From Erpobdella octoculata (taxonomy: Eukaryota > Annelida > Clitellata > Hirudinida > Erpobdellidae), in contig OZ022245.1 in the NCBI GenBank assembly GCA_963978895.1, positions 2,933,121-2,997,120 on the forward strand: a DNA stretch of 64,000 bases, written 5' to 3'. A program made the translations under genes and the position numbers. Positions 36,235-39,200 of the stretch are shown here, in pieces. The notes beneath the pieces are model-generated. The model did no database searches, was not told where the DNA came from, and saw only the letters and a list, made by a program, of their open reading frames with translations. Each line of letters starts with the position of its first letter. Position 1 is the first letter of the stretch.

Positions 36235-39200
36235 ATGCTGCCATCTGGGAGGTACGATTTCGGAGACGGTGGGTATTACTGCGGCGAGTACTACGAGGGG
36301 GTCGTTCAAGGCCACGGCATCTGCGTCTCACCCTCCGGGCAGGGCCAGTACAGCGGCCGGTGGCACCGAGGCATCGAGACTAGCGGGGTCTACACTTGGT
36401 CGAACGGCAAGATTTACGAGGGCTGCTGGTCAGACAAGAAGAAACACGGACTCGGGGTCGAAACGAAAGACAAATGGATTTACCAAGGAGAATGGACCCG
36501 CGGTCTGATTGGGCGATACGGGTGCAAGTACAGTAGGACGTCTAAGGCGTGCTACGAGGGTACTTGGTCTGCGGGGCTCATGGACGGTTATGGAGTTGAA
36601 TCGTCTGCCGATGGAGGTTGGTTTTGGTTTATTTGTAGTTTATCGTTTTGGGTGGAAAAAAAGACTCAATTAAGTCTGTTAGTGGAGCAGCAAAAAAAAG
36701 TGGCCTACAATTTAACACAGAATTACTCGACTCAATATAGACCAAAAATCAATAAATATTTGGAATTTTAATCACTGACGCATATATTAAATTATTTTTA
36801 ATGCTTTAAAAAAATGAGTAATAAAAAATTCAGCAACTTATTCGTTTCTGTCTGTCAAACTGGCTTATCATTTCTTCAGGATAAATAATAGCTTGAAAAT
36901 CTTAAAACAAGTTTTGAGTCATTTTTAATGCTGTTTTGGTGGATTGGACTAAATCATTTGTATTTGATATTGAATGTTTCAAACGTTTTATAAAATCTAA
37001 CTTTTTATAACTAGTTTTCAAAAATAATTTAGAAGAATGCAAAAACTGATATCAGTTTAATTCCATTTCTGATCTGAGATTGAAAGTAATTGGGGAAAAC
37101 TGAAACCTACCTGTAAACGTAGAAGAATATGCTTTCTAGCGATTCGTAACGTTAAAGTCGAAGTTATTTATAACACAATATTTCTCGAATTTATTTTAAC
37201 TTTATTATTCTTCCTTGAATATAATCCTTTTCTTGACTCTGAACTGACTTATCTCACTTTGCAGAAGTTAACCCGGTTCTGACAAATCTTTTGATAATTC
37301 CAATTTCTCTATCTACAACCTTTTTTTTTTTTTTTTTTTTTTTTTTTTTTTTTTTTTTTTATAATAGTTTATAGTCCTTTACACTAGGTGTTTTAAGACT
37401 GAAATGGCTGTGTAGAAAGCACCTAAGTACTTCCTGTCGTAGATCATATTTGATCTTTTCAACTGTCCCTCCTCCTTTATCCAGGCTTGGGACTGGCTCG
37501 CATATAGCGAGGCGGAGTTTATCTACAACCTTACTTTTTTCTATTGAGGACCACAAAAAGGAAAAGGACCAATACCAATTATATATATATACACATATAT
37601 ATATATATATATATATATATATATATATATATATATATATATATATACATATATATATACACATACATACATCCATCCATGTATATATACACTCAAACAC
37701 ACATATACATATACATATATATACATTAATGATAAAAAAATTATACGCACACACAATGTCACAGGAGCACAAATATACATATATATACATACATATACAT
37801 ATACATATATATACACACATATACAAACAGATACATTCATACATAAATGACTATTGTTTCAACACAACCAAAATATGCACACATAATAAAATAAAATAAA
37901 CAAATACTATGAAAATACGTAAGATGAATCATCTTCATCTTACATATCCCCCCTCTTCGAAAAAAGAAACGCGTCAGTGTTTCTTGATTATATCGTCACT
38001 CTCTTTACGACTAAGAAAGTCAGCACCGATGTTTTCCTTGCCTTTGAAATAGTTTACTTTCAACTTATTCTCAATCTCTATCTCTCTGCGTGCTATGTCA
38101 ACAGGACGGGCATCTCCGAAGATTGCCGAATTCAACTTTCCATCTTTCCCCACCCCTCCATTTTGGCCTCTAGGCAGAAGATTGAGCCTTGGTCTTTCTT
38201 TTGGCGTATTCAAAGCTTGAACTTTTGCCTCAACTTCATTTCCTACCTTTGAAATGGCAGACGTGTTTCTTTCCTTGCTTTGATACAGCTCCGAGTTAGC
38301 CGACGATTTTCTAAAATTTACCCGATCATTCCTCTGAGTGCTGTAGTAGTTGGAAGCGGATTTCTGTGGTTTCCGACCAAAGCGATTTCCTGCCGCCATT
38401 GCATCAAAACCCTTTACCCCTTCAACATTTCCCAGCACGAGATCGCAGAGTAGGTTTTTCATGCATACCACCTCTCTGGTTCCTCTGAACCAGTCTGTTT
38501 TGATTTTTACCACTGCTGTTGGAGCTACTCGAACTGTGCCGTCGATCAAAACACAAGGTCTTGTTCTTCCGGTCATCTGACGCGGGTGCACTAATGATTC
38601 CTTTACCATTATGGCAGTACAGCCAGTGTCCCTCAAAACTTTTACCGGTTTTCTGTTCACAAACCCTCTGGTTAATTTAAATTTTTCTCCTGAGTGAAAA
38701 CAACCATCCGCTATTACCGGTGAAAAGCAGCCACATTTTAATTGGACCTCATTCAATTTTCCTTCCATCACCATGGCAGCGCATGCATTCACAACGCCGG
38801 AATCCTTGCATGGTGCTGACGTAGTCGTCTCTTTCCGTGTTTGGCAAAATACTGGATTTCTAGGGCTACTTTGCCGACACTTTCTTGCCAAGTGCCCCGT
38901 TTGATGACAGTTGTAGCAGCGAGGTCCAACCATTTTGGCGTCACTGACCGACTGACCCCGGTTCCAACCCATCCTGCTATTGCTGTCCAATTTTGCCAAC
39001 CTCTTCTCTGGGTGGGCTTGGCTGTACTTGTTTACCCAAAGGCACAGCTCATTGACATCTTTGCTCTCTTTCTCCAACAAGTACTCGACCATTCCCGCCG
39101 GGCACTTTCCGAAAAACTGCTCTTTCAGAAACAAAAACAACAGATTTTGTTTGCCCGCGAGATCTACCCAGCGCCTGAGGTGGCTATCTAGCCGCACTAG

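What the first reader, a model, noticed from the sequence alone, without database searches (positions are those of the whole stretch)
38058..38195. eIF4B-like core captured in a retrotransposon Gag-protease ORF
Residues 523-568 of the element's single ORF read RPRLNLLPR...SAIFGDARPVDIARRE...EIENKL. This is the hallmark order of the conserved eIF4B core (RPxLNLxPR, then SIFGxAxPVDxAxRExEVEEKL-like). The motif is directly followed by a fragment of RNase H. The frame is open and the insertion looks recent. A translation-initiation-factor segment inside a Gag polyprotein could bias translation or packaging of the element's RNA, or may be inert cargo.
Basis: partly seen in the sequence, partly recalled or inferred. 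Interest (0 to 1): 0.88.

Follow-up and report, generated by a model that had tools for sequence, protein, structure and literature searches.

The report
Retrotransposon family carrying captured eIF4B fragment
A mobile element whose signature stretch occurs 461 times in this animal's genome carries, inside its capsid-and-protease gene, about 50 codons of the translation factor eIF4B, likely copied from a different eIF4B gene than the one this animal has now, and today likely carried as inert cargo.

Summary
Residues 518-568 of the 595-aa ORF match a profile of 81 animal eIF4B segments at 48.2 bits (best of 2,000 shuffles 10.0). None of 66 related proteins, all at most 1,042 aa, carries the segment. 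The element is a pol-less LTR retrotransposon with CTACC target duplications and nearly identical LTRs (2 substitutions in 798). Its motif-coding stretch occurs at 461 places: an amplified family, not a single event. Its 3' module is joined to two gag types about 17% apart, and this copy itself switches type near codon 330, which points to recombination.

The host's own eIF4B gene was found. Against it the insert has saturated silent sites (pS 0.74-0.78) but fewer amino-acid changes (pN 0.20-0.30). Among 87 copies the insert evolves as if neutral (omega 0.96, 95% 0.43-2.01), while gag (0.17) and protease (0.26) are constrained. The most economical reading: a fragment that stayed constrained as part of another eIF4B gene (another species' or a lost paralogue), was then captured, and is now likely inert cargo. 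A long-lived functional domain is not excluded. Autonomous partner and donor were not found: 56 of 61 genome-search calls did not complete.

The parts
37107..37111 (.). target-site duplication CTACC (left)
   Evidence: CTACC directly left of the LTR and again at 40668-40672
37112..37944 (-). 3' LTR (TGTAAG...TTTACA on the minus strand), with microsatellites
   Evidence: direct repeat with 39857-40667; 2 substitutions in 798 aligned gap-free bases
37945..37955 (-). polypurine tract GAGGGGGGATA next to the 3' LTR
   Evidence: read from the sequence
37974..39761 (-). single long ORF, 595 aa, Gag-protease-eIF4B-RNase H scrap
   Evidence: Gag homologues
38952..39431 (-). Gag capsid region, residues 111-270, SCAN-like by homology
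   Evidence: 66 homologues at E <= 1e-3, 40 of 66 annotated PF02023; PF02023 does not hit this ORF itself at E <= 1
38871..38921 (-). CCHC zinc knuckle, residues 281-297
   Evidence: PF00098 21.2 bits, cut-off 20.8
38682..38771 (-). codons 331-360, where this copy has gag-type B sequence after type A upstream
   Evidence: codons 301-330: 26 of 28 A copies and 0 of 27 B copies are >= 90% identical to the window; codons 331-345: 2 of 28 A and 25 of 26 B
38430..38666 (-). aspartyl protease region, residues 366-444
   Evidence: PF13975 E 0.0094, 17 bits, below its cut-off 28.2; purifying selection
38211..38411 (-). linker, residues 451-517, origin unassigned
   Evidence: no hit above noise
38058..38210 (-). 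captured eIF4B fragment, residues 518-568
   Evidence: eIF4B profile 48.2 bits; PDB 6fec_u; host eIF4B exon 29/54
37974..38057 (-). RNase H C-terminal scrap and stop, residues 569-595
   Evidence: motif read by eye (recalled consensus); aligned at >= 69% identity in 59 of 60 sampled copies, 41% in L049
39840..39855 (-). primer binding site TGGTGACCCCGACGTA, tRNA-Trp-like (tRNA identity recalled)
   Evidence: read from the sequence beside the 5' LTR
39857..40667 (-). 5' LTR
40668..40672 (.). target-site duplication CTACC (right)

Best explanation
This is one copy of an amplified LTR retrotransposon family without reverse transcriptase or integrase, whose Gag-protease reading frame carries about 50 codons of animal eIF4B, a fragment likely captured as RNA from a donor eIF4B other than the host's present gene and now likely inert cargo. 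Inferred route: during reverse transcription in the particle the enzyme switched from the element's RNA to a co-packaged eIF4B RNA and back into the RNase H end of pol, which removed most of pol and left the frame open. Inferred: the element now lives on polymerase and integrase supplied by an intact relative. Shown: gag and protease stay under purifying selection, and the 3' module is found with two different gags. Inferred from that: selection acts on making Gag, and recombination between co-packaged RNAs exchanges the gag half. The extra residues would ride at the C-end of the polyprotein without a task.
For: eIF4B identity. Element anatomy (LTRs, TSD, one long ORF). Family: 461 motif places, 0 in the reversed control; in the DNA search 40 of 48 match rows run to the interior's end through the insert and the other 8 are 5' pieces next to eight of them, but the search scored only the 40 best of 896 candidates with a query that holds the insert. 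Recent spread: of 30 copies 24 could be parsed, 8 of 24 have 0 LTR substitutions and 22 of 24 have matching 5-bp TSDs. Two gags on one 3' module: of 60 copies 28 are type A, 27 type B and 5 unassigned; mean A-B distance is 0.174 in gag codons 121-240 but 0.042 in the eIF4B codons; two copies switch type near codon 270 and the window copy near codon 330. Insert near-neutral among copies: omega 0.96 [0.43-2.01], n=87, against gag 0.17 [0.12-0.24], n=83, and protease 0.26 [0.16-0.45], n=85; shared N/S 25/9 against protease 28/34, p 0.0099. Donor other than the present host gene: pS 0.74, pN 0.20 over 38 codons of the two motif blocks, or pS 0.78, pN 0.30 over 50 codons with the linker; and 4 mismatches at 23 conserved columns, a number that 7 of 81 eIF4B sequences reach or exceed.
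Against: The insert's frame is open in the best copies: 0 stops in 30 in the window frame (8 of 30 have an indel that is no multiple of three), and 1 stop codon in the insert among 87 usable rows, so a task for it is not excluded. Its 53 codons give a wide omega interval. Silent divergence in the insert (pS 0.033) is lower than in protease (0.112), which is unexplained and could mean constraint on the RNA; part of the protease excess may come from the A/B switch zone at codons 346-360. The donor inference is from short alignments (38-50 codons), and the 38-codon figure left out the variable linker. No donor was found, and no autonomous partner was seen, because those genome searches did not complete. 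The pattern that yielded the 60 copies required 23 bases of the motif, so those codons are biased towards conservation.
Confidence: 0.5

Rival explanations
1. The fragment is a working domain: it was captured long ago and kept by selection in the element lineage because the eIF4B motif on Gag recruits eIF4A, ribosomes or RNA, which would favour translation or packaging of the element's RNA.
For: Against the host gene silent sites are saturated while amino acids are better kept (pS 0.74, pN 0.20 in the motif blocks; 0.78 and 0.30 with the linker). Element-host identity is concentrated in columns conserved across eIF4B (19 of 26 against 9 of 29, p 0.003). The 60 sampled copies hold it, though they were found by it.
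Against: Among copies omega is 0.96 and shared N/S is 25/9, close to the neutral ratio, unlike gag and protease in the same copies. 0 of 66 related proteins have it (full-length Gag-Pol not covered). The two exclusion patterns that were answered found only the host gene, so no diverged second lineage was seen by them.
Confidence: 0.25
2. Old capture from this host lineage's own eIF4B gene followed by neutral drift in the element.
For: The host gene is the best match of 81 eIF4B sequences, 28/56, though only just (next 28/55, leech 27/55). PKERP before the motif is shared with host, leech and also a mite, so it is not specific.
Against: Drift would have made amino-acid change nearly as common as silent change on the insert's branch; pN 0.20-0.30 against pS 0.74-0.78 says otherwise.
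Confidence: 0.15
3. The segment is an ordinary part of this Gag-Pol clade.
For: It is present in the copies of this family that were read, which were found with the insert in the query.
Against: 0 of 66 Gag homologues match the eIF4B profile at E <= 10, and the ORF tail scores at most 4.8 bits in them. Proteins longer than 1.75 times the ORF were not candidates.
Confidence: 0.03
4. Chance resemblance of a low-complexity linker to eIF4B.
For: Pfam has no hit in the tail and the first protein search found none at E <= 1.
Against: 48.2 bits against a best shuffle of 10.0 in 2,000; both motifs in the right order.
Confidence: 0.01

Closest known systems
Bs1 of maize (LTR element with pieces of plasma-membrane ATPase and other host genes; from passages of the review PMC13317346)
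   Same: LTR retrotransposon carrying host coding fragments within its own coding region
   Different: Animal element; a single eIF4B fragment; 461 motif places; gag and protease measurably under selection and gag exchanged; fragment likely not from the present host gene
SCAN-type (Gmr1-like, name recalled) Ty3/gypsy Gag family of animals
   Same: Gag homology, the six best hits covering 74-76% of the ORF; 40 of the 66 homologues annotated PF02023
   Different: No RT or integrase in this element; extra eIF4B segment; PF02023 does not hit this ORF itself
TR-GAG elements (gag-only non-autonomous LTR elements of plants; description recalled, term seen only in the listing)
   Same: LTRs plus gag without polymerase
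   Different: Protease region, RNase H scrap and a captured host fragment
Animal eIF4B
   Same: RPxLNLxPR ... IFGxAxPVDxAxRExEIExxL core
   Different: Only about 50 residues; no RRM hit in the ORF

Membership tests
LTR retrotransposon (Ty3/gypsy type) | paired LTRs beginning TG and ending CA | tested here: met
   37112-37944 and 39857-40667
LTR retrotransposon (Ty3/gypsy type) | 5-bp target-site duplication | tested here: met
   CTACC here; matching in 22 of 24 parsed copies of 30
LTR retrotransposon (Ty3/gypsy type) | tRNA primer binding site | tested here: inconclusive
   TGGTGACCCCGACGTA beside the 5' LTR; tRNA-Trp assignment recalled; no tRNA found in the window
LTR retrotransposon (Ty3/gypsy type) | Gag with CCHC knuckle | tested here: met
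   PF00098 21.2 bits over cut-off 20.8
LTR retrotransposon (Ty3/gypsy type) | aspartyl protease | tested here: inconclusive
   PF13975 17 bits, below cut-off 28.2; several homologues align through the region
LTR retrotransposon (Ty3/gypsy type), autonomous | reverse transcriptase, RNase H and integrase | tested here: not met
   one long ORF in the 1.9-kb interior; no RT, RNase H or integrase family hit in it at E <= 1. Filed as non-autonomous
SCAN-type Gag | PF02023 match in the ORF itself | tested here: not met
   not among families at E <= 1, though 40 of 66 homologues carry it. Called a relative, not a member
eIF4B | conserved core RPxLNLxPR ... IFGxAxPVD | tested here: met
eIF4B | RRM domain | tested here: not met
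   no RRM hit in the ORF at E <= 1. Hence an eIF4B fragment, not an eIF4B protein
captured host-gene element (Bs1 kind) | segment traceable to a cellular gene and absent from related elements | tested here: met
   absence seen in 66 proteins of at most 1,042 aa, not in full-length Gag-Pol
captured host-gene element (Bs1 kind) | donor gene identified | tested here: inconclusive
   host eIF4B found but too diverged to be a recent donor

The most novel reading that the evidence does not exclude
The fragment is a keepsake of a former host: the element captured eIF4B in another animal, entered this annelid-like genome by horizontal transfer, and there multiplied to hundreds of copies while exchanging its gag with resident elements, so that a passenger gene piece records where a retrotransposon came from.
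Probability: 0.3. Interest if true: 0.78.

Novelty: new variant of a known kind. Interest (0 to 1): 0.6.

Why it matters
Host-gene capture by LTR elements is known chiefly from plants and retroviruses (general knowledge; plants in passages of PMC13317346). Here an animal family with hundreds of motif places, two gags and a datable fragment lets one measure whether captured coding sequence is used or merely carried, by comparing it with gag and protease in the very same copies. If the donor is another animal, the fragment is a natural tag of horizontal transfer. The two paper searches that held the term eIF4B with a retrotransposon term (15 of 77 papers listed, 10 of 295 listed) showed no title or abstract start on eIF4B inside a retrotransposon; only CC-licensed PMC papers were searched and the listings were partial, so this is weak evidence of newness.

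Tried and rejected
Pfam on the tail and a 5.8-billion-protein search with the tail gave nothing: the Pfam eIF4B model tried (PF06273) rang in none of 14 control genomes and is, from recall, the plant family; some 50 residues are likely too short for E <= 1 in so large a database. A scan of viral contigs gave 5 pattern matches and no relative. Rfam and tRNA scans of the window were empty. Chance and ordinary-Gag readings were rejected or disfavoured. Drift of a host-derived copy was disfavoured. I looked for longer pol in the older subfamily; the two stretches read downstream (L094, L095) end at the same PPT and LTR. Comparing host and Helobdella eIF4B to place the capture did not resolve it: 25 positions match both, 3 host only, 2 Helobdella only, 25 neither. 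Some Gag homologues align past residue 470 by BLASTP (13 rows, e.g. P0015 to 526, P0048 to 549), but the tail alone scores at most 4.8 bits in them. Not done because the genome search stayed unanswered: autonomous partner with RT, host eIF4B paralogues by RRM, a third exclusion pattern, and a count of elements without the insert.

Rows dropped before counts: copies under 90% coverage or 75% identity to the window copy in a segment were left out (usable 83-87 of 88); 2 of the 60 sampled copies duplicate places in the first 30 and were dropped there, but kept. The 60 come from the 100 places that one search listed of 461 (contigs C1 and C2 only); two listed places close to a neighbour were skipped. 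In one search, 6 of 30 copies could not be parsed, and L017's LTR alignment (131 differences) looks misaligned. Searches showed 24 and 13 of the 60 copies.

Full report
What is there. The ORF at 39761-37974 (minus) encodes 595 residues. It lies between two LTRs, 37112-37944 and 39857-40667, which differ by 2 substitutions in 798 gap-free bases plus microsatellite length; with gaps the identity is 94.2%. CTACC flanks both ends. A polypurine tract and a primer binding site (tRNA-Trp-like, recalled) sit beside the LTRs. The 1.9-kb interior has only this long ORF, and no RT or integrase family hits it. The element lies antisense just downstream of an exon matching the N-terminus of junctophilin (PDB 7rxe_A, E 8.2e-48); that it is inside an intron is inferred from a recalled junctophilin-like stretch near 42689, which found no PDB junctophilin.

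The eIF4B segment. The PDB search with the ORF's tail gave human eIF4B first, E 0.0035. I found the host's own eIF4B with a pattern for FG[GA]A[KR]PVDT, which matches one place in 386 Mb, 0 in the reversed control. That gene has RRM, arginine-rich and motif exons (splice sites guessed), and its best relative among 79 retrieved eIF4B proteins and human is that of the leech Helobdella robusta (212 bits, next 159), hence 'annelid-like host', an inference. A profile of host, human and the 79 gives the element's ORF 48.2 bits, E 1.2e-13; of 66 Gags, the reversed ORF and 2,000 shuffles none exceeds 10.0 bits. What this segment does in eIF4B was not established here; PMC9598784 (passages) names RRM, ARM and DRYG regions.

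The family. The DNA search scored 40 of 896 candidates and gave 48 match rows: 40 run to the end of the interior through the insert, and 8 are 5' pieces beside eight of those. The query held the insert, so this does not show that elements without it are absent. A degenerate pattern for RPRLNLLP occurs 461 times with none in the reversed control; the host gene does not fit it. Places are not quite copies: two pairs on the list lie 1-2 kb apart. I read 60 of the 100 listed places. All 60 carry element sequence on at least one side of the motif; 33 of 60 have the motif's frame open 500 codons or more upstream. In the 30 best matches there are no stops in the window frame, and 8 of 30 have an indel that is no multiple of three.

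Mosaic structure. Among the 60, gag comes in two types (28 A, 27 B, 5 unassigned). Mean A-B distance is 0.174 in gag codons 121-240, 0.296 in the linker at codons 276-330, 0.067 in protease, 0.059 in the tail and 0.042 in the eIF4B codons, where B-B is 0.057 and A-A 0.022. L043 and L090 switch from A to B near codon 270 (24 copies shown). The window copy is itself a switch: at codons 301-330 it is at least 90% identical to 26 of 28 A copies and 0 of 27 B copies, at 331-345 to 2 of 28 A and 25 of 26 B, and at 361-400 to all 28 A and all 27 B. Recombination between co-packaged RNAs is the inferred cause.

Selection. Pairwise omega over 88 copies (usable rows 83-87): gag 0.17, protease 0.26, tail 0.62 [0.36-1.11], eIF4B 0.96 [0.43-2.01], RNase H scrap 0.46 [0.17-1.39]. 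In the 30 best alone the eIF4B value is 1.27 [0.48-4.32] and protease 0.22 [0.09-0.46]. Variants shared by two or more copies: eIF4B 25 N/9 S against protease 28/34 (p 0.0099) and gag 70/88 (p 0.0023). Between an older subfamily (11 copies) and the other 74 of 85, differences fixed at 80% or more in the insert are 2 N and 0 S. So the insert looks free of protein-level constraint now.

Older history. The insert and the host exon differ at pS 0.74 and pN 0.20 over 38 codons of the two motif blocks, and at pS 0.78 and pN 0.30 over the 50 aligned codons with the linker. Element-host identity is concentrated in conserved columns, 19 of 26 against 9 of 29 (p 0.003), and the insert has 4 mismatches in 23 columns conserved at 85% or more (median of eIF4B sequences 1; 7 of 81 have 4 or more). 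The insert therefore likely spent most of its time since leaving the host eIF4B's lineage under eIF4B-like constraint. Either it was still part of a gene (another species' eIF4B or a lost paralogue) or the element used it. Since present copies look neutral, I prefer the first; this is inference. A second pattern for other ERPxLNL genes that excludes the family found only the host eIF4B, with 2 matches in the reversed control.

Limits. 'Autonomous partner', 'template switching', 'horizontal transfer' and 'inert' are inferred. 56 of 61 genome-search calls did not complete. The omega interval for 53 codons is wide, and the low silent divergence of the insert remains unexplained.

Noticed in passing
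window 36235-36771 (+): MORN-repeat exon of a junctophilin (PDB 7rxe_A E 8.2e-48); the retroelement sits antisense just downstream of it.
   Followed up: partly
window ORF codons 76-80; copies L004, L005, L009, L019, L021, L042, L044, L069, L072, L076: Frameshifting indels recur at one A-rich run near nt 232-233 of the ORF: a slippery homopolymer, assembly error or frameshift site.
   Followed up: no
ORF codons 516-568 across copies: Silent divergence in the eIF4B codons (pS 0.033) is about a third of that in the protease of the same module (0.112).
   Followed up: partly
L018, L021, L024, L027, L028, L065, near ORF nt 119-157: Variable-length insertions of about 30-93 bases in the charged coiled-coil part of gag, some but not all multiples of three.
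   Followed up: no
window 20236-20817, 22991-23655, 43817-44422, 52418-53191: Very long simple-repeat arrays (HTYI, poly-S, MYVC, CNNIIIYYT) open in several frames.
   Followed up: no
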